Position numbers and translations under genes: made by a program. 64,000 bases of DNA. Origin: Myxococcales bacterium. GTDB taxonomy: Bacteria; Myxococcota; Polyangia; Nannocystales; Nannocystaceae. The stretch is taken from positions 248,001 through 312,000 of the forward strand of contig JAEUJW010000053.1 in NCBI GenBank assembly GCA_016793465.1, given 5' to 3'. A model generated the notes under the pieces. That model did not search any database. It was not told where the DNA came from and saw only the letters and a list, made by a program, of their open reading frames with translations. Shown here piece after piece: positions 21,933-37,871 of this stretch (within the stretch, counting starts at the first letter, position 1; every line of letters starts with the position of its first letter).

Positions 21933-21941
21933 CGTGCTTCG

Positions 21942-21960
21942 GCGGACCCTCGGGGTCCGC
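21942..21960. repeat. Perfect 8-bp stem hairpin
   Basis: GCGGACCC and GGGTCCGC flank a TCG loop. It lies just after the tRNA terminator and at the border of the tandem repeat that follows. Confidence 0.6.
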
Positions 21961-22121
21961 TGCCCTCGCTCGCCTCCTCGCCCGCGAACCCCGACAACGC
22001 CGGCCGCGACGCGCAGCCGACGGGCTCGCTCCGGGCCGGGCTGCCCTCGCTCGCCTCCTCGCCCGCGAACCCCGACAACGCCCGGCCGCGACGCGCTGCC
22101 GACGGGCTCGCTCCGGGCCGG
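21959..22121. repeat. 81-bp tandem duplication downstream of tRNA-Pro
   Basis: Two copies of an 81/82-bp unit (21959-22039 and 22040-22121) begin GCTGCCCTCGCTCGCCTCCT and end CTCGCTCCGGGCCGG. They differ by one inserted C and a few substitutions, and a short third fragment follows to about 22143. The stretch is noncoding: it lies between the tRNA and the RCC1 gene, and the open frames across it are shadows. Slippage duplication or a decayed tRNA-adjacent insertion are both possible. Confidence 0.85.
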
Positions 22122-22227
22122 GCTTCGCCGGGCTTCGCTCGGGCCCTCCGAGATCGCGCCCGCCGCACCGCTCCGCGTGACCGGGCAACGACCCGGGCCG
22201 TCGGGGTTTTTTGGCATACTGCCGGCG

Positions 22228-24480
22228 ATGCGCCGCCTGCTCCTGCCCCTGGTCCTCGTGTTCGGCTGCGCCCAGGGTCCCCGCGGCTACGGCACCGTCG
22301 CGCCCAAGAAGACCGGCGGCACCACCACCCCGACGGGCGGCGGCACCGGCACCGGCGGCGGCACGAGCAAGCCGCCGCCGCCCGCCGACCTCGGGCCCGC
22401 GCTCGAGGTCGCCGCCGGGGGCCACCACGCCTGCGTGCGCCGCCAGACCGGCGCGGTGCAGTGCTGGGGCCGCGGCGGCTCGGGCGAGCTCGGCGACGGC
22501 AACTTCCGCGACAACCCGCGGCCCGTGCTCGTGGCCGACCTCGCCGACGCCGCGCAGATCGCCGCCGGCGACCAGCACACCTGCGCGCGCCAGACCGCGG
22601 GCACCGTGGTCTGCTGGGGCAGCAACGCCAGCGGCCAGCTCGGCGACGGCGAGGGCCGCCCCGGGGCCCAGAGCGCGCGCCCGGTGGCCGTCAAGAACCT
22701 CGGCGACGCCGTCGACGTGCGCGCCGGCAAGGACCACACCTGCGCCCTGCGCCGCAGCGGCGGCGCGGTCTGCTGGGGCGACAACCGCAGCGGCCAGTCC
22801 GGCGGGGCCGACCGCCAGGTCTGGGTCACCCCGGCCGCGATCGCCGCCCTGCCCGACGCCGTCGAGCTCGCGCCCGGGGCCAGCCACACCTGCGCGCGCA
22901 CCCGGACCGGCAAGGTCGCCTGCTGGGGCAGCGGCGCCGCCGGCCAGCTCGGCGACGGCAGCCCGAGGCGCACCAGCCCCGCCGCGGTGCCCGGCCTCGC
23001 CGACGCGATCGCCGTGGCCTCGGGCCACAACCACACCTGCGCGCTGCGCAAGACCGGCACCGCGGTCTGCTGGGGCGCCGGCTACCCGCGCGCCCCGACC
23101 GCGGTGCCCGTGCTCAAGGACGCGGTCGAGCTGGCCGCCGGCGACGACCACACCTGCGCGCGCAGCAAGGGCGCCCTGCTGTGCTGGGGCCGCAACGACC
23201 GCGGGCAGCTCGGCGACGGCACGCTCGAGGACCGCGCCGGCGCGACGCTCGTGCGCGGCGTCGGCGACGTGCGCCACTTCGCCGCCGCCGCCCGCCTGAC
23301 CTGCGCCGTGACCCGCGGCGGCGGCGTGTACTGCTGGGGCGCCAACGACTTCGGGGCGCTCGGCGCGGGCCTCTTGCCGAGCGCCGGCGACAGCGACGGC
23401 GGGGTCGTCCGCAACGTCACCGGCGCGTCCGACCTGGCCAGCGGCGACGGCTTCTCGTGCGCGGTCGCCGACGGCGGCGTGCAGTGCTGGGGCGCCGGCG
23501 GGCTCGGCCAGCTCGGCGACGGCACGCTCGCCGACCGCAGCCTCGCCGGCCCGGCCAGCGGCCTCGGCGACGCCGTCCAGGTCGCCGCCGGCACCGGCCA
23601 CGCCTGCGCCCGCCGCAGCTCGGGCCAGGTCGCCTGCTGGGGGCAGAACTCGAGCGGCCAGCTCGGCGACGGCACCCGCTCCGTGCGCTCGACGCCGGTG
23701 CCGGTGCAGGGCCTCGCCGACGCCGCGCTCGTCGCCGCCGGCGACCAGCACACCTGCGCCGCCCGCAAGTCGGGCGGGGTCGTGTGCTGGGGCAAGGGCG
23801 CGAGCGGCCAGCTCGGCCAGGGCAAGAAGGAGGACAGCGCCCGCCCGGTCGCCGTGGCCGGCTCCGGCTCGGTCACCAGCCTGTCCCTCGGGACAGGTCA
23901 CAGCTGCGCCGTCACGGCCGGCCGCAGCGTGCTGTGCTGGGGCGGGAACTTCTTCGGCCAGGTCGGCAGCGGCCACACCGTCGGCTTCCCCGAGCTGCTG
24001 CAGCCGCAGAAAGTCGTCAAGGTCGACGACGCCGTCGAGGTCGCCCTCGGCGACGACCACAGCTGCGCCCGCCGCAGCACCGGCCAGGTCGCCTGCTGGG
24101 GGAAGGGCGACGTCGGCCAGCTCGGCGCCAACGTGACCAGCAACTGGTCGACGCGCGTGCCGGTCACCGGCCTCACGTCCGCCACCGCGCTGTCGGCCGG
24201 CCGCGGCTACGCCTGCGCCGCGACGCCCTCGGCCGTGATGTGCTGGGGCGACGACCGCGACGGCCAGCTCGGCGACGGCGCGAAGGGCGGCTACTCCAGG
24301 ACCCCGGTCGCCGGCCAGCGCGTCGGCGACGCCGTGCGCCTGGCCGCCGGCCACGACCACGTGTGCGCGGTGCGCTCGGGCGGCCGCGTGGTCTGCTGGG
24401 GCAGCAACAGCCGCGGCCAGCTCGGCGACGGCACCACCGCCCAGGCGCTGGCGCCGATCGCCGTGGTCGACATCCCCTGA
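22228..24480 (+). CDS. RCC1-repeat lipoprotein (14 repeats)
   Basis: A 750-residue exported protein. The signal peptide LLLPLVLVFGC has a lipobox, followed by a Gly/Thr-rich linker. The rest is 14 RCC1-type repeats of about 50 residues, each with the core C-A-x-x-x-x-x-G-x-V-x-C-W-G-x-N-x-x-G-Q-L-G-D-G. RCC1 repeats form seven-bladed beta-propellers, so 14 copies fit two complete propellers. Two cysteines per repeat, unlike cytosolic RCC1, suggest disulfides outside the cytoplasm. Repeats 5 (WGAGYPRAPT) and 7 (GALGAG) are the most degenerate. Such secreted RCC1-like proteins are common in myxobacteria; binding partners are unknown. ATG 22228 is the first start that gives a signal peptide; the open frame to 21934 covers noncoding repeats. 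Confidence 0.92.
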   Translation: MRRLLLPLVLVFGCAQGPRGYGTVAPKKTGGTTTPTGGGTGTGGGTSKPPPPADLGPALEVAAGGHHACVRRQTGAVQCWGRGGSGELGDGNFRDNPRPVLVADLADAAQIAAGDQHTCARQTAGTVVCWGSNASGQLGDGEGRPGAQSARPVAVKNLGDAVDVRAGKDHTCALRRSGGAVCWGDNRSGQSGGADRQVWVTPAAIAALPDAVELAPGASHTCARTRTGKVACWGSGAAGQLGDGSPRRTSPAAVPGLADAIAVASGHNHTCALRKTGTAVCWGAGYPRAPTAVPVLKDAVELAAGDDHTCARSKGALLCWGRNDRGQLGDGTLEDRAGATLVRGVGDVRHFAAAARLTCAVTRGGGVYCWGANDFGALGAGLLPSAGDSDGGVVRNVTGASDLASGDGFSCAVADGGVQCWGAGGLGQLGDGTLADRSLAGPASGLGDAVQVAAGTGHACARRSSGQVACWGQNSSGQLGDGTRSVRSTPVPVQGLADAALVAAGDQHTCAARKSGGVVCWGKGASGQLGQGKKEDSARPVAVAGSGSVTSLSLGTGHSCAVTAGRSVLCWGGNFFGQVGSGHTVGFPELLQPQKVVKVDDAVEVALGDDHSCARRSTGQVACWGKGDVGQLGANVTSNWSTRVPVTGLTSATALSAGRGYACAATPSAVMCWGDDRDGQLGDGAKGGYSRTPVAGQRVGDAVRLAAGHDHVCAVRSGGRVVCWGSNSRGQLGDGTTAQALAPIAVVDIP

Positions 24481-25280: not shown

Positions 25281-27020
25281 TCAGCAGCCCTCGGGCTTCG
25301 CCTCGATCTTCGGGGTCCCGTCGGCCGCCAGCACCTGCGAGCTCGACACCCGCGCCCCGCAGTCCCACCCGACCACCGCGCCGCTGCACTTCGAGCAGGT
25401 CACGTTGTCGAGCCTCGCGCCGGCCGGGCTGCGCACGAACACCGCGCTGTCGTTGGCCGCGCCGGTCAGCGTCAGGTGCTCGAGCGAGCTGCCGGACGAC
25501 TTGCCCTCGAGCAGGATGCCCGGCCACGTGCCCCGGGCCGTGTCGGCCGGGCCGATCGTCACCGGCGCGGCCGCCGTGCCCTTGCCGATCAGCGCGCCGG
25601 CCTCGTAGTACCCGACCTTGATGGCCGCCTCGGGCCCGGCGAGCAGCGCCAGCCCGGCCTCGAGCGTCAGCTCGCCCTCGACCCCGACCTCGCCCTCGAG
25701 CTGCAGCGGCACGCCCTGGGCCCGCCACGTGGTCTTGCCCTTGACCGTCTCGCCCGTCACCAGGATCTTGGCGTCCTTGTCGAAGCCGTTGCCCTCGCCG
25801 AGCCCGCCGACCAGGTTCGCCGGCAGGCTGATCGCCACCGGCGTGGCCACGAAGGTGTTGTCGGCGAACGCGGTGAGCCGGGCGGCCGCGTTGGCCTTGA
25901 CCCCGAGCTTGTCGCTGCGCAGCGTGGTCGACCTCAGCGACAGCGCGCCGCCCTCGACGTCGAGCGCGCCCCGCTCGTCGCGCCCGGCGAACTCGAAGAC
26001 CGCCCGCTCGACGGTCGCCTCGCCGCTGCCGTGGATCTTCACGCCCGACCACGCCCCGGCCTCGCGCCGGTCCTGGGCGGTGAACGTCACCGGCGCGTCG
26101 GCCGTGCCCTTCACCACCAGCGCCGCGTTGTCGTAGTAGCCGACCGTGAGGCCGCCGGGCTCGGCGAACTTCAGCTCGAGCCCCGCGGCCAGCTCGAGCG
26201 TGGTCCGCTGCCCGCCGTCGCCGTCGACCCCGACCGCCTCCGAGATCACCAGCGGCGCGCCGATCGGCGCCCACCGGGCCGACTTCTTGACCGTCCCGCC
26301 GAGCACCAGCACGAACGCCCCGCCGTCGAAGCGGTTGCCCCCGCCGAGCCCGCCGAGCGCCTGCGGCGGCGCCTCGATGGCCGCCGGCCGCCCGATCTTC
26401 TTGAACTCGTTGCCGCTGAAGGCCAAAAAGCCGCCGGTCTCGCCGACCACGAGCCCCGTCTTCGACTCGCGGATCGCCGTGCCCGTGACCGTGACCTCGC
26501 CCGCCTCGACGCGCAGCGCCGCCTCGTCGCCCGCGCCCGCGTACTCGATCACCAGGCCCTCGACGCTCGACCGCGACGCCTTGGCGTGCAGCGTCACCCC
26601 GCGCCACACCCCGGCCGCCCGGTCGCCGCCCGAGGTGAACACCACCGGCGCCTCCGCCGTGCCTTTAATAATTAATTTGGCCGGCTCGTTGAAGCCGACG
26701 GTGAGGCCGACGCCGTCCTTGAAGGCCAGCGAGGCGCCGGCCTCGAGCGTCAGGCTGCCGCCGTCGATCACCAGGTCCTCGGTCACCGGCACGACCCCGC
26801 AGTCCTTGGAGATCACCCGGTGCTGCTTCTCGGGGCCACCGAGCGACTTCGGACACTCGGTGATCGCCCCGACCGGCGCGACCGCGGCGCCCGCGGCGTT
26901 CGGGTCGCTCGCCCCCGCCGTCGCCCCGCCCGCGCCCGCCTTGCCCGCCGCCCCGCCGTCCCCTGCCTTGCCGCATGCCACCAGCGCGAGCGCCACCACG
27001 AACCGCGAGCTCCTGATCAT
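25281..27020 (-). CDS. Right-handed beta-helix lipoprotein
   Basis: A 579-residue exported protein. MIRSSRFVVALALVACGKAG gives a clear lipoprotein signal (lipobox LVAC), then an Ala/Gly linker. The remainder is a solenoid: three long modules each contain a variant of LTLEAGASLAFKDGVGLTVGF, then IKGTAEAPVVFTS, then GVWRGVTLH and ..VEGLVIEYAG. Regular turns of about 22-25 residues and the W-x-G-V motif match parallel beta-helix proteins related to DUF1565/pectate-lyase-like repeats. A final region has four cysteines (NVTCSKCSG, GWDCG, PEGC). No catalytic acid cluster can be pointed to, so a polysaccharide-binding or adhesin role is as likely as an enzyme. It is the upstream partner of the hypothetical lipoprotein. 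Confidence 0.85.
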   Translation of the reverse strand: MIRSSRFVVALALVACGKAGDGGAAGKAGAGGATAGASDPNAAGAAVAPVGAITECPKSLGGPEKQHRVISKDCGVVPVTEDLVIDGGSLTLEAGASLAFKDGVGLTVGFNEPAKLIIKGTAEAPVVFTSGGDRAAGVWRGVTLHAKASRSSVEGLVIEYAGAGDEAALRVEAGEVTVTGTAIRESKTGLVVGETGGFLAFSGNEFKKIGRPAAIEAPPQALGGLGGGNRFDGGAFVLVLGGTVKKSARWAPIGAPLVISEAVGVDGDGGQRTTLELAAGLELKFAEPGGLTVGYYDNAALVVKGTADAPVTFTAQDRREAGAWSGVKIHGSGEATVERAVFEFAGRDERGALDVEGGALSLRSTTLRSDKLGVKANAAARLTAFADNTFVATPVAISLPANLVGGLGEGNGFDKDAKILVTGETVKGKTTWRAQGVPLQLEGEVGVEGELTLEAGLALLAGPEAAIKVGYYEAGALIGKGTAAAPVTIGPADTARGTWPGILLEGKSSGSSLEHLTLTGAANDSAVFVRSPAGARLDNVTCSKCSGAVVGWDCGARVSSSQVLAADGTPKIEAKPEGC

Positions 27021-27181: not shown

Positions 27182-28702
27182 GTGTCCACGCCCTCGCCGG
27201 ATCTCCGCGTGCTCGCGGTCGCGACCCTGGCGGTCGCGCTCGCGTGCACGTCCACCCCCGGCGAGCCGCGCCCGCTGCCGGCCGCCGCGGCCCAGCCACC
27301 GCCTGTCCCTTCGGACAGCCCGCCGGCGGCCGCCCCCGACCCCGCGCCGGGCCTGCCGGCGTTCCCCGGCGCCGAGGGCTTCGGCGCGCGCGCGACCGGC
27401 GGCCGCGGCGGGCGCGTGATCATCGTCAGCAACCTCGAGGTGCGCGGCCCCGGCTCGCTGCAGGCCGCGCTCGACGAGACCGGCCCGCGCACGATCGTGT
27501 TCCGCGTCAGCGGCGTCATCCCGGCCAGCGTGCGCATCGCCAGCGGCGACGTGACGATCGCCGGCCAGACGTCGCCCGGCGGCGTCACCGTGCGCGGCCT
27601 CCACACCACCGAGGAGCCCTACTGCGACCAGGCCTGCGGCGCCGCCGTCCGCGGCGTCGACAACTTCATCGTCCGCCACCTGCGCTCGCGCCCGGCCGGC
27701 GGCGACTTCCCCGACGGCCTGCGCCTGCGCTACGCCCGCAACGGCATCGTCGACCACCTGTCGATCGCCAACGCCTCCGACGAGGCGGTCGAGGTGTCCT
27801 ACGCGCGCGACATCACCATCCAGTACACCATGCTCGCCGAGACCCTCGGCGAGCACGCCAACCTCGGCGGCATGCTGTTCAACTACAGCAACCCCGAGGC
27901 CGGCTACGACCTGACGCGCTTCTCGATCCACCACAACCTGTGGAACCGCATCGACGGTCGCATGCCCGAGCTCTCGCGCGAGAGCCCCGGCGCCGCCGGC
28001 ACGACCATGGCGATCGAGCTGTCGAACAACCTGCTGTGGGACCCCGGCTACTACGTCGACATCAACCCCACGACCATCTCCGGCAGCCCCGACGGCGCGC
28101 CGATCTACTACGACCTCAACTGGGTCGGCAACCTCGTCGTCGCCCGCGACGACTTCCCCTACGGCGCGCTGTGGCTGCCGAACCCCGGCGGCCGCTCGAC
28201 CGCCTACCTCGCCGACAACGCGCTCAACGTCGCCCCCGACCGCCACGACTGGCAGCTCGTGTACTGCTGCAACGACTTCAAGGCCACGCCGCCGCCGCCG
28301 ACCCCGAAGTGGGCCCGCGGCGAGCGCCACCCGTTCCCGCCGATCACCTACACCGCCGGCGCGGCGCTGCAGGAGCACCTGATCGCCGAGGTCGGCAGCT
28401 TCCCCCGCGACCTCATGGACCAGCGCCTGCTCGCGCCGCTGAAGAAGCACCGGATCGCCGAGACCCTGCGCGGCCTCAACCCCGCGGGCGACGCCCTGCG
28501 CACCCTGCCCGCCCCCGCCCCGCCGCTCGACACCGACGACGACGGCATGCCCGACGCGTGGGAGGCCGGCCACGGCCTCGACCCGCGCGCGCAGGACCAC
28601 AACGGCGGCCAGCTGTCGCTCTCGCTGCTCGGCGTGGCCGGCTACACCAACCTCGAGTGCTACCTCGCCGAGCTCGCCCGCGAGCGCGTGCAGGGGCCCT
28701 GA
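27182..28702 (+). CDS. Secreted pectate lyase-like beta-helix protein
   Basis: A 506-residue exported protein starting at GTG. LRVLAVATLAVALAC is a lipoprotein signal, followed by a Pro/Ala linker. The domain from FPGAEGFGARATGGRGG through GSLQAALDETGPRTIVFRVSG, VTIAGQTSPGGVTVRG and DGLRLRYARNGIVDHLS is the hallmark of the pectate lyase C/PL1 relatives found in Gram-negative saprophytes (often labelled pectate lyase or right-handed parallel beta-helix). A C-terminal DTDDDGMPDAWE segment is a calcium-binding thrombospondin-type-3 loop. Asp and Arg residues on the helix face could bind Ca and act in beta-elimination, but the catalytic Arg cannot be assigned. Likely substrate: extracellular polysaccharide. 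It stands divergent from the beta-helix lipoprotein (161-base gap). Confidence 0.86.
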   Translation: MSTPSPDLRVLAVATLAVALACTSTPGEPRPLPAAAAQPPPVPSDSPPAAAPDPAPGLPAFPGAEGFGARATGGRGGRVIIVSNLEVRGPGSLQAALDETGPRTIVFRVSGVIPASVRIASGDVTIAGQTSPGGVTVRGLHTTEEPYCDQACGAAVRGVDNFIVRHLRSRPAGGDFPDGLRLRYARNGIVDHLSIANASDEAVEVSYARDITIQYTMLAETLGEHANLGGMLFNYSNPEAGYDLTRFSIHHNLWNRIDGRMPELSRESPGAAGTTMAIELSNNLLWDPGYYVDINPTTISGSPDGAPIYYDLNWVGNLVVARDDFPYGALWLPNPGGRSTAYLADNALNVAPDRHDWQLVYCCNDFKATPPPPTPKWARGERHPFPPITYTAGAALQEHLIAEVGSFPRDLMDQRLLAPLKKHRIAETLRGLNPAGDALRTLPAPAPPLDTDDDGMPDAWEAGHGLDPRAQDHNGGQLSLSLLGVAGYTNLECYLAELARERVQGP

Positions 28703-28717: not shown

Positions 28718-29557
28718 TCAGCGCCGCGCCGCGGCCAGCGCCGTCGTCACGGCGACTTCGAGGCTCGCGTGCACGTCGATCGCCGGCAGCCCCGCCCCGG
28801 CGAGCAGGCGGGCCCCGGCCGGCCCGAGCCCGACGAGCACCAGCCGCGCGCCGAGCAGCCGCACCGCCGCGGCCGCGCGGCGCAGGTGCTCGGCCAGCCC
28901 GACCTCGAGGTCGGTGAGCCCGGTGAGGTCGAGCAGGACCGTGTGCGCGCCGTGACGGGCGACGCTGGCGAGCATGACGTCGAGGATCTCCCGCGCCCGC
29001 TCGCTGGCCACGGCGCCGACGATCGGCAGCAGCAGCACGCCCGGCAGCACCGGCAGCACCGGCGCCGAGAACTGCCGGGCCAGGCGCAGGGCGGACTCGC
29101 GGGCCTCGTGGTGGGCCCGATCGAAGGCCGCGTCGACCCCCGCCCGCGCCCCGTCGCTGAGCCGCCGGACCACGTGCGCGGCGACCAGCAGCTCCTCGGC
29201 CCCGCGCAGGCAGGCGCTCGCGAGCTCGTGCAGCACCTCCTCGGTGAGCGCGACCACGTGGAGCAGCGACCGCGGCGACAGGCCCTGGCGGGCCCGCTCG
29301 TGGGCGATGGCCGCGAACATCCGGGCGAAGTCCTCCGACTCGTGCTCGAGGCTGGCGAGCACCGCCGTCATGCCCCGGTGCGTGTTGGGCAGCACCTGCG
29401 CCAGCGTCAGCACCTCGTAGCCGGCGAGCTTCATGGTCCGCAGCGCCGAGCGCTCGACCACCCCCGCGAAGTCGTCGCGCAGCGCCCGGGCCAGCGCCGC
29501 CCGCACGCGCGCGAGCTCTGCCGTGTCGGCGCCGATGTGGCGGAGCAGCGTCTCCAT
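28718..29557 (-). CDS. RsbR-like STAS-domain protein
   Basis: A 279-residue cytoplasmic protein. Residues 1-160 are helical with LLRHIGADTAELARVRAALA and a SLLHVVALTEEVLHELASACL block, like the N-terminal sensory part of RsbR/RsbRD proteins. Residues 170-277 form a STAS domain: VLPVLPGVLLLPIVG, then the beta-alpha core TVLLDLTGLTDLEVGLAEHL and LGARLVLVGLGPAGARLL. In RsbR-type proteins conserved Thr/Ser residues of the STAS domain are phosphorylated by an RsbT-type kinase; the Thr residues in LDLTGLTD are the candidates here. No RsbT, RsbS or RsbX gene is in the window, so any stressosome role must rely on distant genes. The start follows the family N-terminus. Confidence 0.87.
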   Translation of the reverse strand: METLLRHIGADTAELARVRAALARALRDDFAGVVERSALRTMKLAGYEVLTLAQVLPNTHRGMTAVLASLEHESEDFARMFAAIAHERARQGLSPRSLLHVVALTEEVLHELASACLRGAEELLVAAHVVRRLSDGARAGVDAAFDRAHHEARESALRLARQFSAPVLPVLPGVLLLPIVGAVASERAREILDVMLASVARHGAHTVLLDLTGLTDLEVGLAEHLRRAAAAVRLLGARLVLVGLGPAGARLLAGAGLPAIDVHASLEVAVTTALAAARR

Positions 29558-29841: not shown

Positions 29842-32214
29842 TCACGGCGTGCCGCAGTAGCGGCCGTGGCAGCCCCAGGTGATGTTGCGCAGGTAGTACA
29901 CGTAGTAGGCGCCGCAGTTGCGAACCTTGGCCGGCTCGCTCCAATTGCAGGAGTTGCCCGACCAGTTGAAGCAGACCGTGCGGTCGACGACGCCCTGCTG
30001 CACGGTCGGGTGGGCCCCGTTCATCCAGCCCGAGGCGTGCGTGCCGCAGCGGTAGCTCGGCACCACGTAGTCGGCCAGGCGCGTGCCCGCCTCGCCCTGG
30101 AAGCGGTACCACTGCTGGGTGAACGGGTTGTCGCAGCCCGCCGCGCCGTTGACGTTGTTAACGCTGCGGTTGAAGTCGCTGAGCACCGCGTAGCTCTGGC
30201 ACTCGGTCGGCAGCGGCGTCGGCGTGCAGTTGGCCTCGCAGCCGTCGCCGTTGACCAGGTTGCCGTCGTCGCACTGCTCGACCCCGGCCCGGACCACGCC
30301 GTCGCCGCACACCGCGTTCTTGCAGTTGTTGAGGCAGACGTCGGTGTTGACCCCGTTGCCGTCGTCGCACTGCTCGACGCCGGCCTGGACCACCATGTCA
30401 CCGCACACCGCCGTCTTGCAGCTGTTGAGGCACGCGTCGGTGTTGACCGCGTTGCCGTCGTCGCACTGCTCGACGTTCTGCTGGACGAACATGTCGCCGC
30501 ACTTGGCCGTCTTGCAGGTGTTGAGGCACGCGTCGGCGTTCGAGAGGTTGCCGTCGTCGCACTGCTCGCCCGCGCCCGGCTGCACGAACTGGTCGCCGCA
30601 CTTCGGCAGCTTGCACGCCAGCGTGCACGCCCCGGTGTTGCTGTTGTTGCCGCCGAGGTCGCAGTCCTCGCCGGGCTGCTTGAAGCCGTCGCCGCAGGTC
30701 GCCAGCTTGCACACGTTGGTGCACGCGTCGTCGTTCGACATGTTGCCGTCGTCGCAGGCCTCGCCCGGGCCGACGAACCCGTCGCCGCACACGTTGAGCG
30801 TGCAGTTGGCCTTGCACGCCTTGTTGTTGGCGTTGTTGGGCCCGTCGTCGCACTGCTCGACGTTCTGCTGGATGAGCCCGTCGCCGCACACCGCGCTCTT
30901 GCAGTTCGCCGTGCACGCGCCGCTGTCGCTGTTCTGGCCCCCGAGGTCGCACTGCTCGCCGGTGCTCGGCTGCAGCAGGGCGTCGCCGCAGACCGGCAGG
31001 GCGCAGGCGTCGGTGCAGCCGTCGTCGGGGTCGCCGTCCTTGCCGTCGTCGCACTGCTCGCCCGGGTCGAGGATGCTGTTGCCGCACTCCTCGAGCTTGC
31101 AGGTGGGCGAGCAGCCGTCGCTGCCGGCCTGGTTGCCGTCGTCGCACTGCTCGCCCGGGCCCTGGTCGCCGTCGCCGCACACGTTCGCCGCGCACATGGC
31201 GTTGCACGCCTTGCCCGGGCCGTTGTCGACCCCGTTGTCGCACTCCTCGCCGCCGTCGACGTAGAGCTTGCCGTCGCCGCACACCGCGTCCTTGCAGTCG
31301 GTCGTACAGGCCCCGCTGTCGGCGTTCTCGACCCCGAGGTCGCACTGCTCGCCGTTGCCCGGCTGCTCGAAGCCGTCGCTGCAGACCGCGTCGGTGCAGG
31401 CCTCGGTGCAGGCGTCGGTGTTGATCTTGTTGCCGTCGTCGCAGGCCTCGGTCGGGGCGACGATGCCGTCGCCGCAGCTGGCCAGCGCGCAGGCGTTGGT
31501 GCACTCGTCGTTGTCGTTGGCGTTGCCGTCGTCGCAGCCCTCGCCGGGCCCGACCGCCATGTCGCCGCACACGTTGTTGGTGCAGTCGGCCTTGCAGCTG
31601 TTCATGTCGGCGTTGTCGGCCCCGTCGTCGCACTCCTCGCCGGGCCCGGGGTCGCCGTCGCCGCAGGTGTTGGCCTGACAGGTGGCGCTGCACGGCTGCC
31701 CGGGGCCGTTGTTCGCCCCGTCGTCGCAGGCCTCGCCGGGGCCGAGGTCGCCGTCGCCGCACACGCCCAGCGCGCAGGCGGCGTTGCACGCCATCCCGGG
31801 GCCGTTGTTGGCCCCGTCGTCGCACTCCTCGTCCATGTCGATCACGCCGTCGCCGCACACCGGCGCGGGCCCGCCGCTGCTGCTGCCGTCCCCCGTGGCG
31901 CTGGTGTCCTCCGGCTCGCTCGTGGTCGTCACGCCGGTCGTCACCGGCACGGTCGTCATCGACGTCACCGGCGGCTCGGTCGTGCCGGTCGTGTCGATCG
32001 CCGACGCCGAGCCCGTGTCGTCCGGTTCGCTGGTCGGCACCGCCGTCGTCGTCGTCACCAGCCCGCTCGTCGTGCCGACGCCCGACGAGCTGCCGACGTC
32101 GGTCTCACCGCTCGTCGTCGGCGTCGTCTCGTTGCCCCCGCACGCCGTCATCCACCCGGCCAGCGCCATCACACCGCAGCCCAACCGCTTCCCACCCAAC
32201 ATTCGAATGTGCAT
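29842..32214 (-). CDS. DUF4215 Cys-rich repeat lipoprotein with C-terminal uromodulin-like D8C domain
   Basis: About 790 residues. The signal region MLGGKRLGCGVMALAGWMTAC has a lipobox (TAC), then a Thr/Ser/Gly linker with TTT and TSEPDDT runs. Seventeen DUF4215/myxococcal Cys-rich repeats follow, each near C-G-D-G-x-x-x-x-G-E-x-C-D-D-G-N-x-x-N-x-D-x-C-x-x-x-C. The last 120 residues (29845-30207) are different and closely match the D8C domain of vertebrate uromodulin/GP2: WYRFQGEAGTRL, CGTHASGWMNGAHPT, RTVCFNWSG and YYVYYL, ending RYC. Cysteines align except that the TCVP cysteine of uromodulin is replaced (VVP). Start 32214 (MHIR) or 32202 (MLGG); the upstream open frame is noncoding. A surface-anchored, disulfide-rich stalk with a terminal domain is inferred. 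Same-strand neighbour 32746-34140 has the same plan. Confidence 0.9.
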   Translation of the reverse strand: MHIRMLGGKRLGCGVMALAGWMTACGGNETTPTTSGETDVGSSSGVGTTSGLVTTTTAVPTSEPDDTGSASAIDTTGTTEPPVTSMTTVPVTTGVTTTSEPEDTSATGDGSSSGGPAPVCGDGVIDMDEECDDGANNGPGMACNAACALGVCGDGDLGPGEACDDGANNGPGQPCSATCQANTCGDGDPGPGEECDDGADNADMNSCKADCTNNVCGDMAVGPGEGCDDGNANDNDECTNACALASCGDGIVAPTEACDDGNKINTDACTEACTDAVCSDGFEQPGNGEQCDLGVENADSGACTTDCKDAVCGDGKLYVDGGEECDNGVDNGPGKACNAMCAANVCGDGDQGPGEQCDDGNQAGSDGCSPTCKLEECGNSILDPGEQCDDGKDGDPDDGCTDACALPVCGDALLQPSTGEQCDLGGQNSDSGACTANCKSAVCGDGLIQQNVEQCDDGPNNANNKACKANCTLNVCGDGFVGPGEACDDGNMSNDDACTNVCKLATCGDGFKQPGEDCDLGGNNSNTGACTLACKLPKCGDQFVQPGAGEQCDDGNLSNADACLNTCKTAKCGDMFVQQNVEQCDDGNAVNTDACLNSCKTAVCGDMVVQAGVEQCDDGNGVNTDVCLNNCKNAVCGDGVVRAGVEQCDDGNLVNGDGCEANCTPTPLPTECQSYAVLSDFNRSVNNVNGAAGCDNPFTQQWYRFQGEAGTRLADYVVPSYRCGTHASGWMNGAHPTVQQGVVDRTVCFNWSGNSCNWSEPAKVRNCGAYYVYYLRNITWGCHGRYCGTP
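30222..31865 (-). repeat. 17 DUF4215-type coding repeats
   Basis: Seventeen tandem units of about 93-99 bp, each reading GTTGCCGTCGTCGCA-like on the plus strand, encode the Cys-rich stalk. Copies diverge enough to be old, with a few close pairs near 30290-30500. Confidence 0.85.
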
Positions 32215-32745: not shown

Positions 32746-34140
32746 TCAGTTGCGCCCGCAGTACACGTAGCTGCACGCGATCGTGTTCGGCAGGTTGTAC
32801 AGGTAGTAGCTGCCGCAGTTGACCACGTCGATCTCCCAGGTCTGCCAGCAGTCGCCGGGCGTCCAGTCGAAGCAGACGGTGCGCTTCACCACGCCCTCCT
32901 GGATCGTCGGGTGGGGGTCGTCGAGCCAGCCGGCGGCGTGCGTGCCGCAGTGGTAGTCGCCCGGGGGCGCGTCGGCCATGCGGACGCCGGCGGCGCCGCT
33001 GTAGCGGTACCAGCCCGGGCCCTTCCAGTCGACCGTCTGGTTGCCCACGCCGGCGATGTCGCAGCGCACGGTCGTGCCGTTGTCGTTGAAGCTGTTGATG
33101 CGGGTCGCCGCGCTGAACGTGTTGTACGGCATGTTGCACTGGGCGTTGACCTCGAGCTTGCACGTCGACGAGCAGCCGTCGCCGTTGACGACGTTGCCGT
33201 CGTCGCACTCGTCGACGCCCGCCTGCACGAACCCGTCGCCGCACTTCGCGACCTTGCAGGCCGCGCACGTGTCCGTGTTCACCATGTTGCCGTCGTCGCA
33301 TTCGTCGACGCCCGCCTGTACGAACCCGTCGCCGCACTTCGCGGCCTTGCAGGCGACGCACATGTCGGTGTCGACCATGTTGCTGTCGTCGCACTCGTCG
33401 ACGCCCGCCTGCACGAACCCGTCGCCGCACTTCGCGGCCTGGCAGCCCGCGCACATATCGGTGTTGTCGTCGTCGCCGTCGTCGCAGGCCTCGCCCATCT
33501 GCACCACGCCGTCGCCGCACGAGCCCGCCATACACTGCGAGTTGCAGCCGTCGTCCTCGACGTCGTTGCCGTCGTCGCACATCTCGGCCGGGCCGACGAT
33601 GCCGTCGCCGCAGACCGCCAGCTTGCACGCGCTGGTGCACTCGTCCTCGTCGATCTGGTTGCCGTCGTCGCACTCGTCGACCCCGGCCTGGATGAAGCCG
33701 TCGCCGCAGACCGCCAGGAGGCACATGTTGGTGCACTCGTCGAGGTCGTCCTGGTTGCCGTCGTCGCACTCCTCGCCCGGGTCGACCGCGCCGTCACCAC
33801 ACGCCGGCATCGCCCCCGACGACGTGTCGCCCGAGCTCCCGCCCGTCGTCAGGTCGCCCGTCGTCGGGTCGCCCGTCGTCGGGCCGCCCGTGGTCGGGTC
33901 GCCCGAGGAGCTGCTGTCCGCGCTCGTCGGCCCGGTCGACGTCGAGCCCCCCGTGGAGCTGCCGGCCGAGGTGCTCGTCGTCGGCTCCCCGGACGACGTC
34001 GGCGCCGTCGTCGTCGTCTCCGGCGCGGTCGACGTCATCGGCGTCGTCGTCGTCGTCGTCAGCGTCGTGGTCGCGCCGTCGTCGCCACAGCCGAGGCACA
34101 CGCTCGCTATCATCCCCAACCAATTCAGCTTCGATCCCAT
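32746..34140 (-). CDS. DUF4215 repeat lipoprotein with C-terminal uromodulin-like D8C domain (second copy)
   Basis: A 464-residue paralogue of the neighbouring protein. MGSKLNWLGMIASVCLGC is a lipoprotein signal; a Thr-run linker (TTTTTT, TTGDPTTGG) follows. Seven DUF4215 repeats come next, three of them almost identical and each starting CGDGFVQAGVDECDD, then a D8C domain (32749-33145) with GPGWYRYSGAAGVRM, CGTHAAGWLDDPHPT, KRTVCFDWTPGDC and YYLYNL, ending VYCGRN. This copy is nearer to the uromodulin order W-Y-R-x-x-G-x-G-x-R-M. ATG 34140 is fixed by the signal peptide. The C-terminal domain is the shared, better-conserved part of the pair, so it is likely the functional head while the repeats act as a spacer. 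Ligand unknown. Confidence 0.9.
   Translation of the reverse strand: MGSKLNWLGMIASVCLGCGDDGATTTLTTTTTTPMTSTAPETTTTAPTSSGEPTTSTSAGSSTGGSTSTGPTSADSSSSGDPTTGGPTTGDPTTGDLTTGGSSGDTSSGAMPACGDGAVDPGEECDDGNQDDLDECTNMCLLAVCGDGFIQAGVDECDDGNQIDEDECTSACKLAVCGDGIVGPAEMCDDGNDVEDDGCNSQCMAGSCGDGVVQMGEACDDGDDDNTDMCAGCQAAKCGDGFVQAGVDECDDSNMVDTDMCVACKAAKCGDGFVQAGVDECDDGNMVNTDTCAACKVAKCGDGFVQAGVDECDDGNVVNGDGCSSTCKLEVNAQCNMPYNTFSAATRINSFNDNGTTVRCDIAGVGNQTVDWKGPGWYRYSGAAGVRMADAPPGDYHCGTHAAGWLDDPHPTIQEGVVKRTVCFDWTPGDCWQTWEIDVVNCGSYYLYNLPNTIACSYVYCGRN
33193..33440 (-). repeat. 93-bp near-identical tandem repeats inside DUF4215 gene
   Basis: Units start at 33193, 33286 and 33379 with exact 93-bp spacing (31 codons) and only a few differences. 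They look recently duplicated compared with the other repeats of the same gene, so copy-number change is likely ongoing. Confidence 0.85.
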
Positions 34141-34394: not shown

Positions 34395-35018
34395 GTGCAC
34401 GAAGACGTCGAACTGCTCGACGCCTGGAAGGCTGGCGACACCAGGGCCGGAGCGGCGCTGTTCGAGCGCCACTACCCCGGGGTCCTGCGGTTCTTCCACA
34501 ACAAGGCCGGCGATCAGGGGAAGGACCTGATCCAGCGGACCTTCCTGCGCTGCCTCGAGGCCCGCGACCGCATCCTGCCGGGCTCGAGCTTCCGCGCCTA
34601 CCTGTTCGGCGTGGCCCGCAACGTGCTGCTCGAGCACTTCCGCGGCCTCCGACGCGACGGCGAGCGGCTCGACGAGATGCAGTCGACCGTGCAGGACGTG
34701 GCGCCCGGGCCGACGCCGAGCTCGCTGCTCGCCCGCAAGCGCGAGGTCCGGCTGCTGCTCGCGGCCCTGCGCAAGATCCCCATCGAGCTGCAGATCGCCC
34801 TCGAGCTGTTCTACTGGGAGGGCATGCCGGCCGGCGAGATCGCCGTCGCCTTCGGCCTGCCCGAGGGCACCGTCCGCACCCGCCTCCGCCGCGCCCGCCA
34901 GCTGCTCGAGCAGGAGATCGCCGCCACCGCCGCGAGCCCGCTCGAGCTGCAGTCGACCATGAACGGCCTCGCCGGCTGGGTCGCCGAGGTCCGCGACGCC
35001 GCCGCCCGCCCGCGCTGA
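34395..35018 (+). CDS. ECF-type RNA polymerase sigma factor
   Basis: A 207-residue sigma-70 family protein starting at GTG. Region 2 is GKDLIQRTFLRCLEARDRI with FRAYLFGVARNVLLEHFRG (about residues 38-80). Region 4 is IALELFYWEGMPAGEIAVAF followed by GLPEGTVRTRLRRARQLL (about 133-175), the helix-turn-helix that reads the -35 element. The linker between is short, as in ECF factors. No anti-sigma gene lies next to it: the following gene is a convergent MBL hydrolase and the upstream one is the D8C lipoprotein on the other strand, with 254 bases between. The target regulon cannot be told; the divergent D8C gene is a candidate by position only. Confidence 0.92.
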   Translation: MHEDVELLDAWKAGDTRAGAALFERHYPGVLRFFHNKAGDQGKDLIQRTFLRCLEARDRILPGSSFRAYLFGVARNVLLEHFRGLRRDGERLDEMQSTVQDVAPGPTPSSLLARKREVRLLLAALRKIPIELQIALELFYWEGMPAGEIAVAFGLPEGTVRTRLRRARQLLEQEIAATAASPLELQSTMNGLAGWVAEVRDAAARPR

Positions 35019-35020
35019 GC

Positions 35021-35881
35021 TCAGGCCGCCCAGGCCACGCGGGCCTGCCCCTCGCGCGCCGAGAACTTGCCCTGCGGCGAGCGCTGCAGCTTGCTCGCGG
35101 CCACCTCGGGGTCGTGCGTATAGAACGCCCAGCCGTCCTCCGCGAGGATGCCGGCCAGCAGCGCCTCCTTCTCGTCGATGAGCAGCTCGGGGTAGCGGTC
35201 GTAGCCCATGGTGATCGGCAGGTGGACCCACGGCACCCCGGGCACCAGGTCGCCGAGGAACGTCACCGGCCCGGCCGGGCCGACCACGCGCGTCAGCATC
35301 AGCCCGGGCGTGTGGCCCTCCGACAGCGTGAACGTGTAGCCGGCGCCGAGCGTCTGCGAGCGGTCGCCCGCGATCTGCTCCAAACGACCTGTCCCCTGCA
35401 ACATGTCCTGCAGGCCAGGGATGAACGAGGCCCGGTCGCGCGGGTGCGGGGCGACCGCGCGGGCCCAGGCGCGCTCGCTGACCACGTAGCTGGCCCGCGG
35501 GAACACCAGGGCCGGGGCCGCGTCGGCGCTCCAGGCCGACAGCAGCCCGCCGGCGTGGTCGAAGTGCAGGTGCGACAGCACGACCACGTCGACGTCGGCC
35601 GGCCGCACGCCGAGCGCGGCGAGCGAGCGCAGCAGCACGTGCTCGGGCTCCTGCACGCCGAAGCGGTCGCGCAGCTTGGGCTCGAAGAACGCGCCGATGC
35701 CGGCCTCGATCAGCACCGTGCGCCCCGAGTCCTCGCGCACGAGCATGCTGCGGCAGGCCAGGCGGATGCGGTTGTGATCGTCGGGCGGGGCCCAGGCGGT
35801 CCACACCGCGCGCGGGCAGTTGCCGAACATCGCCCCGCCGTCCAGGCGCTGGGTGTTGCCCTCGACCGAGAAGATCTGCAT
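35021..35881 (-). CDS. MBL-fold metallo-hydrolase
   Basis: A 286-residue soluble enzyme of the metallo-beta-lactamase fold. The zinc-binding motif is HLHFDHAGG near residue 103-111. Later metal ligands are likely His in SEGHTPGL and Asp in TFLGDLVPG. The order and spacing fit the quorum-quenching lactonase/YtnP-like branch of hydrolases, but substrate is uncertain: lactone, ester or thioester are all possible. There is no signal peptide. It is convergent with the ECF sigma gene, only two bases between stops, and has a separate promoter upstream near 35882-35969. Confidence 0.87.
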
Positions 35882-35969: not shown

Positions 35970-36827
35970 TCAGCCGCCGCCGGCGATCGCGTGGGCGATG
36001 CCCGCCTTCAGGTCGCCGAGGATCACGACGTCGCCGAGGTCCGTGCCGAGCGCGACCAGCGTGTGCGCGACCACCGGCTGCACGCCGGTGATCACAGCCT
36101 CGGCCCCGAGCAGGCGGATGGCCCGCGCCGCCCGCAGCAGGGCGTCGGCCGCGGTGGTGTCGACGGTGTGCAGCCCGGTGATGTCGAGGATCGCGACCCG
36201 CGCCCGGTGCTGGACCACCCCGGCCAGCAGCGCCTGCATGACCTGGGCCGCGCGCTCCGGGTCGAGCACGCCGATCACCGGCAGCACGACCACGCCGTCG
36301 GCGACCGGCAGCAGCGGCGTGGCCAGCTCGGCGAGCAGGGCTCGCTGACGGGCCAGCGCCGCCTCGGCGGCCAGCTTCTGCTGCGTCAGGTCGCGGTGAG
36401 TGCCGACCAGCCCGAGCAGCTCGCCGTCGCGGCCGAACACCGGCGCCTTGTAGGTCTCGACCCAGACCACCCGCCCGGCGGCGTCGCGGACCTCCTCGAC
36501 GATGTGCGGCTTGGGCTGGCGCGCCGCCAGCACCGCCCGGTCGTCGGCCACGAACCCGTCCGACTGCGCGCGCGTCCACGGCAGGTCGTAGTCGGTGCGC
36601 CCGACCCAGCCCGCGTCGTCCGCCGCCTCGCCGTAGCCGGTGAAGCGCAGCGTCTCGCGGTTGGCCCCGCGGTACAGCAGATCGGTGTCCTTCCAGAACA
36701 CCCCGAACGGCAGCGCCTCGAGCACCCCGCGCAGCAGCGCGGCCTCCCGCTGCAGCGCACGCACCTGCGCCTGCAAGCCCTCGCGTTCGTCGGCGGACCG
36801 GGTGTCGGGCGGAGGATCGACGGCCAT
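35970..36827 (-). CDS. PAS-STAS (RsbR-type) sensory protein
   Basis: A 285-residue protein. A short coiled coil ([20 protein letters not shown]) precedes a PAS domain (about 35-155) with [19 protein letters not shown] and [20 protein letters not shown] second helix ([19 protein letters not shown]) links to a STAS domain (about 175-282) with [36 protein letters not shown] and [19 protein letters not shown]. Thr residues in [10 protein letters not shown] correspond to phospho-sites of RsbR-like proteins. The PAS domain may bind a ligand or cofactor; none can be named. The start at 36827 gives the usual length, and the open frame continues to 37763 as a shadow of the CoiA-like gene. Divergent from that gene (108-base gap). 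Confidence 0.88.
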
Positions 36828-36935
36828 CGCACCGCAGCCTACGCGAGCCCGCCTCCGCCGTGGAGGGCCGGCAGGCGGCGCCCGGTGGCGCGCCCCCGCG
36901 CCGCGGGCGGCGGTGAATGTACACTCTCGCCCGCG

Positions 36936-37871
36936 ATGCCCGCCGCCAGGCCCGAGAGGAGCTTTCGTGTGCCCTACGGGCTCGACGAGCACGGACGGCT
37001 CGTCGCCAGGCAGGACGCCGTCCGCGGGAGCGCCTACGCCTGCCCCGCGTGCGGCGAGGCGCTGGTGCTGCGCGCGGGCCCCAGGGTCAGCCGGAACTTC
37101 GCCCACCGCCCCTCGCCGGTGTGTAGTGGCGAGACGGCCCTGCACCGCGCGGCCAAGCTGCTCGTCAAGCAGGTCGCCGACGACGCCCTGAACGGCGGCC
37201 CGGGCATCGACCTGCGGATCTCCTGCGCGACCTGCCGCGCGGCGTTCGACGTCGGCGTGCCGCTCGCCAGCTTCGACGCCGCGTCCGTCGAGGTCCGCCT
37301 GCAGTCGGGCCGGGTCGTCGACGTGCTGCTCAGCAAGGACGGTCAGCCGCGCCTCGGCGTCGAGGTGTTCGTGTCGCACCGCGTCGACGCTCGCAAGGCC
37401 GGCGCGCTCGACATCGCCTGGATCGAGGTCGACGCCGACGAGCTCGTGGCCCACCCGCGGCGTTGGCGGGCCCGCGCGAGCAAGCTCCGCAGCGAGCGCT
37501 GCCCCAAGTGTCGCGCGGTCGAGTCGCTGCGCAGGCAGCATCTGGGGCACGCGCTCGCCCACGCCGGCCTGGTGTGCCCGCCGAGCTACCGCGCATCGCC
37601 CGCCCGCTGCCACCGCTGCAGCGAGCTGATCCCGCTGTTCGACTGGGACGGCGGCACGTGGACCCACGGCGCGCCGCCGGAGCCGCGCCCGCCCACGCTG
37701 CAGCGCAGCTCCCCGCGCCGCGACGAGGCCGGCTCGTGGACCAACACCTGCCCGCACTGCCACGCGCCCCAGGGCGACTACCTGATGCGCACGGCGATCC
37801 TCGACTACCTCAACGAGCTCACCGCCAGCGTCGAACGATCCCTCGGCGCCGAGCCCCGCGGTCCGACCTGA
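36936..37871 (+). CDS. CoiA-like competence/nuclease protein with zinc-finger motifs
   Basis: A 311-residue soluble protein. The N-terminal part has CPACGEALVLRAGPRVSRNFAH (ends trimmed here), the zinc-finger-plus-FAH pattern of CoiA-like proteins. A nuclease-like core follows: GRVVDVLLSKDGQPRLGVEV with Asp and Glu in the D...E-x-x pattern and FVSHRVDARKAGALD. Additional CxxC pairs appear at ERCPKCRAV, ARCHRCSEL and NTCPHCHAP, so several metal-bound ribbons are likely. CoiA acts in DNA uptake and recombination in Firmicutes; in myxobacteria the role is untested. The ATG at 36936 matches the motif start, and the upstream frame is a shadow of the PAS-STAS gene. Convergent with the hybrid kinase. 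Confidence 0.78.
   Translation: MPAARPERSFRVPYGLDEHGRLVARQDAVRGSAYACPACGEALVLRAGPRVSRNFAHRPSPVCSGETALHRAAKLLVKQVADDALNGGPGIDLRISCATCRAAFDVGVPLASFDAASVEVRLQSGRVVDVLLSKDGQPRLGVEVFVSHRVDARKAGALDIAWIEVDADELVAHPRRWRARASKLRSERCPKCRAVESLRRQHLGHALAHAGLVCPPSYRASPARCHRCSELIPLFDWDGGTWTHGAPPEPRPPTLQRSSPRRDEAGSWTNTCPHCHAPQGDYLMRTAILDYLNELTASVERSLGAEPRGPT

What the first reader, a model, noticed from the sequence alone, without database searches (positions are those of the whole stretch)
29845..30207. Animal-type uromodulin D8C domain at the end of a bacterial Cys-rich lipoprotein
The C-terminal 120 residues follow the vertebrate uromodulin/GP2 D8C domain motif by motif: an opening Cys then L-D/S-x-x-x-R-S, C-D, W-Y-R-F-x-G-x-G-x-R, C-x-T-x-A-x-x-W-x-N-G-x-H-P, C-x-x-W-S-G, C, Y-Y-V-Y-x-L, C, Y-C. 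Seven or more cysteines align. In animals this domain is found in extracellular polymer-forming proteins. Its presence on a lipid-anchored stalk of 17 DUF4215 repeats suggests an unreported bacterial surface adhesin class or an old inter-kingdom transfer.
Basis: partly seen in the sequence, partly recalled or inferred. Interest (0 to 1): 0.82.

Follow-up and report, generated by a model that had tools for sequence, protein, structure and literature searches.

The report
Uromodulin-type D8C domain in myxobacteria
A domain best known from the human kidney protein uromodulin sits at the end of predicted lipid-anchored, cysteine-rich proteins of myxobacteria, with the same predicted fold but one disulfide bond fewer, which points to an old exchange between animals and bacteria and to a possible new kind of bacterial surface-binding tip.

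Summary

D8C occurs in 15 of 29 genomes of the Nannocystis pusilla family, 29 of 317 of its class and 20 of 377 sampled from its phylum. Of 72 bacterial domains none has either cysteine of one GP2 disulfide (C3-C6); 17 of 17 animal ones have both. D8C ends the protein in 39 of 47 cases, on different stalks; four proteins also carry SRCR domains.

Best explanation: a ligand-binding tip on a surface-anchored stalk, working like the Myxococcus receptor TraA but not of its family. Homology and distribution are shown; surface exposure and binding are inferred. Direction of the inter-kingdom transfer is unresolved. My paper searches found no description of bacterial D8C.

The parts
29842..32214 (-). 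Predicted lipoprotein of 790 aa: lipobox signal sequence, Thr/Ser-rich linker, 17 DUF4215 / TIGR02232 cysteine-rich repeats, C-terminal D8C domain
   Evidence: Translation; PF13948 171.6 bits and PF23283 46.5 bits; TIGR02232 222 bits; 17 repeats counted; start ATG at 32214, chosen among in-frame starts by the lipobox
29845..30207 (-). D8C domain of the first protein (121 aa, 8 Cys, 4 expected disulfides)
30208..31857 (-). Array of 17 DUF4215 (cysteine-rich acidic) repeats, about 32 aa each, proposed stalk; ends approximate
   Evidence: Repeat count; spacing; AF2 of the last repeats is of low confidence, so the rod shape is inferred
32746..34140 (-). Adjacent paralogue, predicted lipoprotein of 464 aa: lipobox (VCLGC), 7 DUF4215 repeats, C-terminal D8C
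   Evidence: Translation; PF13948 123.8 bits, PF23283 43 bits; 7 repeats (a narrower pattern found 3); lipobox
32749..33138 (-). D8C domain of the paralogue (130 aa, 8 Cys); 50 of 118 aligned residues identical to the first D8C
   Evidence: nearest row is Enhygromyxa salina, 76% identity

Best explanation
This is a genuine D8C (D10C) domain, homologous to that of uromodulin and GP2, used in myxobacteria as an interchangeable tip at the far end of lipid-anchored, disulfide-rich stalk proteins. Steps: (1) the protein is exported, acylated at its lipobox cysteine and held in the outer membrane; (2) the 17 DUF4215 repeats fold into a disulfide-stabilised extended stalk; (3) the compact C-terminal D8C, held by four disulfides, is presented away from the cell and binds a partner (a protein or glycan on prey, kin or matrix). 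Shown here: homology, predicted fold, domain order, lipobox enrichment, recurrence on different stalks. Inferred: surface exposure, rod-like stalk, binding. The ligand is unknown. The animal FimH decoy mechanism, which needs an N-linked high-mannose glycan, is not expected to carry over. The relation to animals is by an old transfer, direction unresolved.
For: Family and fold. Stalk repeats. Lipobox by one fixed rule in 28 of 47 D8C proteins against 25 of 313 neighbouring genes (Fisher p 3e-15); an earlier, different rule gave 23 of 47 against 25 of 313. D8C ends the protein (2 or fewer residues after it) in 39 of 47. Stalks differ while D8C stays: DUF4215, Stig1 (L097, L100), collagen + DUF7151 (L077), MopE repeats (L080, L087, L101, L103), and Dicty_CTDC (L091) and Kelch (L092), where D8C was found by the genome search and my own profile but not listed by the Pfam scan of the whole protein. 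Precedent in the same phylum: TraA, a PA14 recognition domain on cysteine-rich repeats for which a rigid-stalk role was proposed (PMC3325183, abstract and passages seen). C3-C6 is missing as a pair in 72 of 72 bacterial domains while C4-C10 and C5-C7 are complete in 72 of 72, which indicates that the rest of the animal pairing is kept.
Against: No experiment or ligand is known. 19 of 47 D8C proteins failed the lipobox rule (some are cut by contig ends or read from upstream in-frame starts; by eye several show near-lipoboxes). In 8 of 47 D8C is internal, so it is not always a tip. AF2 did not give a confident stalk (block means 36-59 pLDDT over residues 1-100 of the 250 folded, 69-77 over 101-130). 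Conserved neighbours are few: one D8C lineage lies at a shared place beside a TerB-family gene in 4 genomes, which suggests no binding function. A lipobox does not tell which side of the outer membrane the protein faces.
Confidence: 0.55

Rival explanations
1. D8C is a C-terminal folding, stability or sorting cap of cysteine-rich lipoproteins: it protects the end of the repeat array or marks it for export, with no ligand.
For: D8C is at the very C-terminus in 39 of 47 proteins, on unrelated stalks, as a sorting or capping domain would be.
Against: 8 of 47 have it internally, four of them in proteins with SRCR domains. DUF4215 repeats are plentiful (174, 174 and 146 matches in G005, G006, G003 with 150 candidates scored each; in the cut list more than 30 different open frames in G005 alone), while those genomes have 3, 2 and 3 D8C domains, so most such arrays seem to manage without it.
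Confidence: 0.2
2. A surface decoy: the bacterium displays D8C to catch adhesins of other bacteria or phage tail proteins, as uromodulin and GP2 catch FimH.
For: Same domain and predicted fold; animal D10C proteins act as decoys for FimH (PMC8930769, abstract and passages seen).
Against: The animal decoy acts through a high-mannose N-glycan held between a beta-hairpin and D10C. A sequon at the UMOD N275 column is present in 3 of 72 bacterial domains (and 1 of 17 animal ones), at N232 in 13 of 72 (3 of 17 animal). By eye no separate cysteine-bonded hairpin precedes D8C in the window protein; the DUF4215 array runs up to it.
Confidence: 0.1
3. Homotypic kin or self recognition: D8C tips on neighbouring cells bind each other, as TraA does.
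For: The layout resembles TraA with inverted polarity; several copies per genome and tandem copies occur; the two window copies share only 50 of 118 residues. A PDB entry titled 'Uromodulin filament lattice interface' (9nu1) holds a 118-residue chain that matches the D8C model over nearly its whole length, which hints that D8C can take part in contacts between filaments (title only, paper not seen).
Against: No within-species variation data were available. No conserved partner gene of TraB kind was recognised nearby. In GP2 filaments the ZP module forms the core and D10C extends outward (PMC12212870, passages seen).
Confidence: 0.12
4. Animal DNA contamination or chance resemblance.
For: Nearest animal relatives seen are corals at 46-52% identity to the window domain.
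Against: GC3 of the two D8C stretches is 0.975 and 1.0, like the rest of the genes (0.987, 0.97); D8C is fused in frame to DUF4215 arrays; it is in the named strains Nannocystis pusilla DSM 53165 and Enhygromyxa salina SWB007; 72 of 72 bacterial domains differ from the animal ones in the same two cysteines; E 5e-27.
Confidence: 0.01

Closest known systems
D10C (D8C) domain of human GP2 and uromodulin (PDB 7p6r, 7pfp; Pfam PF23283)
   Same: Significant profile and sequence match, same predicted fold (TM 0.93, 1.2 A), cysteines of four of the five disulfides
   Different: C3-C6 disulfide absent; on a predicted bacterial lipoprotein with DUF4215 repeats instead of an EGF/ZP protein; N-glycan site not conserved
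Coral (Oculina, Porites, Pocillopora) proteins with D8C
   Same: Closest animal sequences found, 46-52% identity to the window domain
   Different: All ten cysteines in 14 of 15 domains (the other lacks C5); several carry further Pfam accessions which I recall as EGF, PAN and lectin domains (accessions)
[quoted passage not shown]
   Same: Recognition domain on cysteine-rich repeats, at the cell surface, same phylum (PMC3325183 and PMC6626042, passages)
   Different: PA14 instead of D8C, N-terminal instead of C-terminal, MYXO-CTERM instead of lipobox, other repeat family (TIGR04201, here TIGR02232); analogy only
DUF4215 / TIGR02232 (myxo_disulf_rpt) proteins of Myxococcota
   Same: Repeat part of both window proteins
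   Different: Many DUF4215 frames and few D8C domains per genome, so most lack D8C

Membership tests
D8C / D10C domain family (PF23283) | Profile score over the curated cut-off | tested here: met
   46.5 and 43 bits for the two proteins, 51.9 for the first domain alone, cut-off 27
D8C / D10C domain family (PF23283) | D10C fold | tested here: met
D8C / D10C domain family (PF23283) | Cysteines of disulfides C1-C8, C2-C9, C4-C10, C5-C7 | tested here: met
   All eight present in both window domains; C4-C10 and C5-C7 in 72 of 72, C1-C8 in 65 of 72, C2-C9 in 63 of 72 (8 of the 9 misses have a cysteine one residue on). By alignment; bonds not seen directly
D10C in the strict five-disulfide sense of GP2/UMOD | Disulfide C3-C6 | tested here: not met
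   Neither cysteine in 72 of 72 bacterial domains, both in 17 of 17 animal ones
Uromodulin/GP2 proteins | ZP module and EGF domains | tested here: not met
   Pfam lists only DUF4215 and D8C in both proteins at E up to 0.01
Uromodulin/GP2 decoy module | High-mannose N-glycan site at UMOD N275 | tested here: not met
   Sequon at that column in 3 of 72 bacterial domains; the window domain has one within a few columns but not at it. GP2 itself uses another site, N65, so this feature does not define the family
Bacterial lipoproteins | Signal sequence with lipobox | tested here: met
   Both window proteins pass the rule (the second failed the first rule); a pattern rule, not a trained predictor
TraA-type receptors | PA14 domain and MYXO-CTERM | tested here: not met
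   No PA14 listed by Pfam; the protein ends with the D8C, no MYXO-CTERM seen by eye
Surface adhesins | Surface exposure and adhesion | not testable with these tools
   Needs experiment

The most novel reading that the evidence does not exclude
The D8C domain arose in bacteria (Myxococcota or relatives) as a four-disulfide surface-recognition tip and was captured by an early animal, which added the fifth disulfide and turned it into the antibacterial decoy domain of uromodulin and GP2; the SRCR domains found with it in some myxobacteria may have travelled the same road.
Probability: 0.28. Interest if true: 0.87.

Novelty: new variant of a known kind. Interest (0 to 1): 0.62.

Why it matters
In the papers I saw, D8C/D10C is treated as a domain of animal polymer-forming and defence proteins. 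Finding it, with the same predicted fold and a clean one-disulfide difference, at the end of predicted surface lipoproteins of myxobacteria gives uromodulin's decoy domain a possible outgroup, makes the question of its origin testable, and offers a small version for finding what the domain binds without N-glycans. It also names a candidate surface-recognition class in bacteria known for kin recognition and predation, and shows D8C in the same proteins as SRCR, a second domain that I know mainly from animals.

Tried and rejected
Plasmid (72,556 records) and phage (50,697 records) collections searched by tblastn: no match. Viral-contig scan: 48 stretches matched a pattern, none confirmed. So a mobile-element or phage origin has no support here; these searches have limited reach.

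Conserved neighbours: 313 picked genes around D8C genes in 43 loci plus part of the window. Seven clusters occur in 3 or more genomes: kinase-like genes in 9 genomes (the two members scanned have Pkinase domains) at varying distance and orientation; a group with a window gene (the hybrid histidine kinase) in 3 other genomes; and a shared place in G005, G014, G015 and G019 where a TerB-family gene follows the D8C gene on the same strand within about 95-225 bases, with gyrase/topoisomerase IV subunit genes on the other side in three of them. The last suggests inheritance of that D8C gene with its place; it says little about function. The remaining two clusters occur in 3 genomes each and were not scanned. 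The window's own genome is not held, so its full D8C number is unknown.

Direction of transfer: the tree (90 rows, 121 columns) needs 2 changes for animals and 4 for the 71 rows labelled myxo; holding animals together lowers lnL by 15.16, AU p 0.224. The bootstrap had not settled and long branches meet, so I claim no direction. P0021 (metagenome protein of unknown origin) grouped with bacterial rows but is a long branch; it lacks C3, C6, C5 and C7.

A third protein search with P0019 returned only itself. AF2 of the last repeats plus D8C did not resolve the stalk. Other phyla could not be sampled with the genome search, since I had only handles from this phylum; the single scan of genome contigs used one peptide pattern (48 matches, 6 confirmed; five titles name Myxococcota members, the sixth is 'Proteobacteria bacterium Deltapro3', whose genome G002 was drawn in the phylum of N. 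pusilla). So 'restricted to Myxococcota' is not claimed.

Rows dropped: one cut-off D8C copy at the start of P0010 (residues 1-77) fell under my length limit of 90; identical sequences were counted once.

Full report
What is there. The finding lies on the minus strand. 29845-30207 translates to 121 residues without a stop, the end of an ORF whose stop codon ends at 29842. From the ATG at 32214 the protein has 790 residues, with a hydrophobic start, a lipobox (WMTAC), a Thr/Ser-rich stretch, 17 cysteine-rich repeats (DUF4215, PF13948 171.6 bits; TIGR02232 222 bits) and the D8C domain. D8C_UMOD (PF23283) scores 46.5 bits for the protein and 51.9 for the domain alone, cut-off 27. The adjacent gene 32746-34140 (minus) has the same plan: lipobox, 7 repeats, D8C at 43 bits. 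The two D8C domains share 50 of 118 aligned residues and fall in different parts of the tree, so they are diverged paralogues.

One disulfide fewer. The GP2 crystal structure has five disulfides: C1-C8, C2-C9, C3-C6, C4-C10, C5-C7 (PMC8930769, abstract and passages seen). I aligned 90 domains: 66 from the window and fetched loci, P0005-P0009 and P0019 (metagenome proteins; P0005-P0008 also have DUF4215; the bacterial origin of P0009 and P0019 is inferred), 15 coral domains, human GP2 and UMOD, and P0021 (origin unknown, left out of both groups). C3 and C6 are absent in 72 of 72 bacterial domains and present in 17 of 17 animal ones. C4-C10 and C5-C7 are complete in 72 of 72 bacterial ones, C1-C8 in 65, C2-C9 in 63; in 8 of the 9 last misses the cysteine stands one residue on. 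Absence of both partners of exactly one known bond is what a shared pairing predicts. P0021 lacks C5 and C7 as well, again as a pair.

Distribution. Genome contigs, one pattern: 6 confirmed loci of 48 pattern matches, among them Nannocystis pusilla DSM 53165 and Enhygromyxa salina SWB007. With PF23283 over its cut-off: 6 of 6 of those genomes; 15 of 29 genomes of the family of N. pusilla; 29 of 317 of its class; 20 of 377 sampled from its phylum. None of 14 named control genomes matched in any of these four searches. Five genomes of the class search (G361, G386, G388, G568, G569) have two D8C domains about 1.2 kb apart (places), comparable to the window pair. No match in plasmid, phage or viral collections. 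In the protein collection the first window protein finds coral proteins best (10 of its 12 hits), the second finds five metagenome proteins, four with DUF4215. The window's own organism is not told and its genome is not held; its D8C relatives point to the Nannocystaceae or near.

Architecture. I fetched 40 regions and used L003, L005, L006 and part of the window: 47 D8C proteins in 43 of 44 stretches (none was called in L090). Some places found were not fetched. D8C ends the protein in 39 of 47. A fixed lipobox rule is met by 28 of 47 against 25 of 313 neighbouring genes (Fisher p 3e-15); a first rule gave 23 of 47 against 25 of 313. By a simple repeat pattern 28 of 47 have at least one DUF4215-like repeat (counted). 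Others use Stig1 (L097, L100), collagen plus DUF7151 (L077), MopE repeats (L103), Dicty_CTDC (L091) or Kelch (L092) (in L091 and L092 the Pfam scan of the whole protein did not list D8C, while genome search gave 37 and 41.4 bits). I scanned 14 of the non-window locus proteins with Pfam. Four of them, from three genomes (L079, L080, L087, L101), join D8C to SRCR domains, which I know mainly from animals (recalled). SRCR occurs in 18 of 377 phylum genomes, 6 of which also have D8C where 0.95 is expected (hypergeometric p 1e-4; this takes it that both searches drew the same 377 genomes and ignores genome size).

Evolution. Median identities: within bacteria 44%, bacteria-coral 44%, coral-human 45%, bacteria-human 38%. 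GC3 of the two window D8C stretches is like that of the rest of the genes. In four genomes of the family one D8C gene lies at a shared place, next to a TerB-family gene, so it was inherited there for some time. So the exchange, whichever way, is probably old. The tree has few columns and unsettled support; animals fall in two groups, but one animal group is not rejected (AU p 0.224). The fifth disulfide separates the two sides in this sample, which suits one exchange better than many, but is not proof. Direction is open.

How it may work. A lipid anchor at the N-terminus, a disulfide-rich array and a compact C-terminal domain make a stalk with a tip. TraA of Myxococcus has a PA14 recognition domain on cysteine-rich repeats for which a rigid-stalk role was proposed (PMC3325183, abstract and passages); TraA fusions are reached by protease at the cell surface (PMC6626042, passages). 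The present proteins are the mirror image: anchor first, tip last. I take D8C to be the binding part; the ligand may be prey, kin or matrix. Alternatives are a C-terminal cap or sorting domain, homotypic recognition and a decoy. The animal decoy mechanism by an N-glycan is not conserved (sequons at the UMOD N275 and N232 columns in 3 and 13 of 72). The stalk model itself is neither supported nor refuted by AF2, and surface exposure is untested.

Surroundings. Neighbours by Pfam: STAS protein 28718-29557, ECF sigma factor 34395-35018, metallo-beta-lactamase-fold protein 35021-35881, PAS-STAS protein 35970-37763, hybrid histidine kinase 37891-40632, RCC1-repeat protein 21934-24480. Of the window's neighbours only the hybrid kinase has relatives near D8C genes in three or more genomes, in varying positions, which is likely to reflect the size of that family.

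What is in print. Searches for DUF4215 with myxobacteria, D8C with DUF4215, D8C with uromodulin-like and evolution, myxobacteria with SRCR and horizontal transfer, uromodulin with myxobacteria, and SRCR with Myxococc found no paper. PF23283 or D10C listed four papers, by title on GP2, uromodulin and a zebrafish gene (passages of two seen; one is PMC8930769). D8C with uromodulin and bacteria listed ten, which by titles and abstract starts concern animals or patients. The library is open-access only. Pfam matches on metagenome proteins are precomputed in the protein collection, so databases already hold the fact without comment; whether InterPro lists bacteria I could not check.

Noticed in passing
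L079, L080, L087, L101 (G136, G068, G098): SRCR domains with high scores (97.7 to 289.2 bits) in large myxobacterial proteins that also hold D8C; SRCR is present in 18 of 377 phylum genomes.
   Followed up: partly
P0021 (JGI protein, organism unknown): Coiled-coil-like protein with a C-terminal D8C lacking both C3-C6 and C5-C7; may be a non-animal eukaryote.
   Followed up: partly
P0019 (JGI protein, organism unknown): Long repeat array ending in a D8C of the bacterial eight-cysteine type; a search with it returned only itself.
   Followed up: partly
L005:8488-9204, L075:7331-8044, L085:6142-6858, L106:7489-8259: TerB-family gene directly downstream of a D8C gene in four genomes (three of the four proteins scanned), beside topoisomerase subunit genes in three.
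   Followed up: partly
window 25281-27020 minus and 27182-28702 plus: Two genes next to the D8C pair that look by eye like a beta-helix lipoprotein and a pectate-lyase-like protein; no Pfam match.
   Followed up: no
window 21934-24480 plus: 848-aa protein made of RCC1-type repeats, 552.5 bits to WD40_RLD.
   Followed up: no
G005, G006, G003: 146 to 174 DUF4215 repeat matches per genome (150 candidates scored each), a very large family of cysteine-rich proteins.
   Followed up: no
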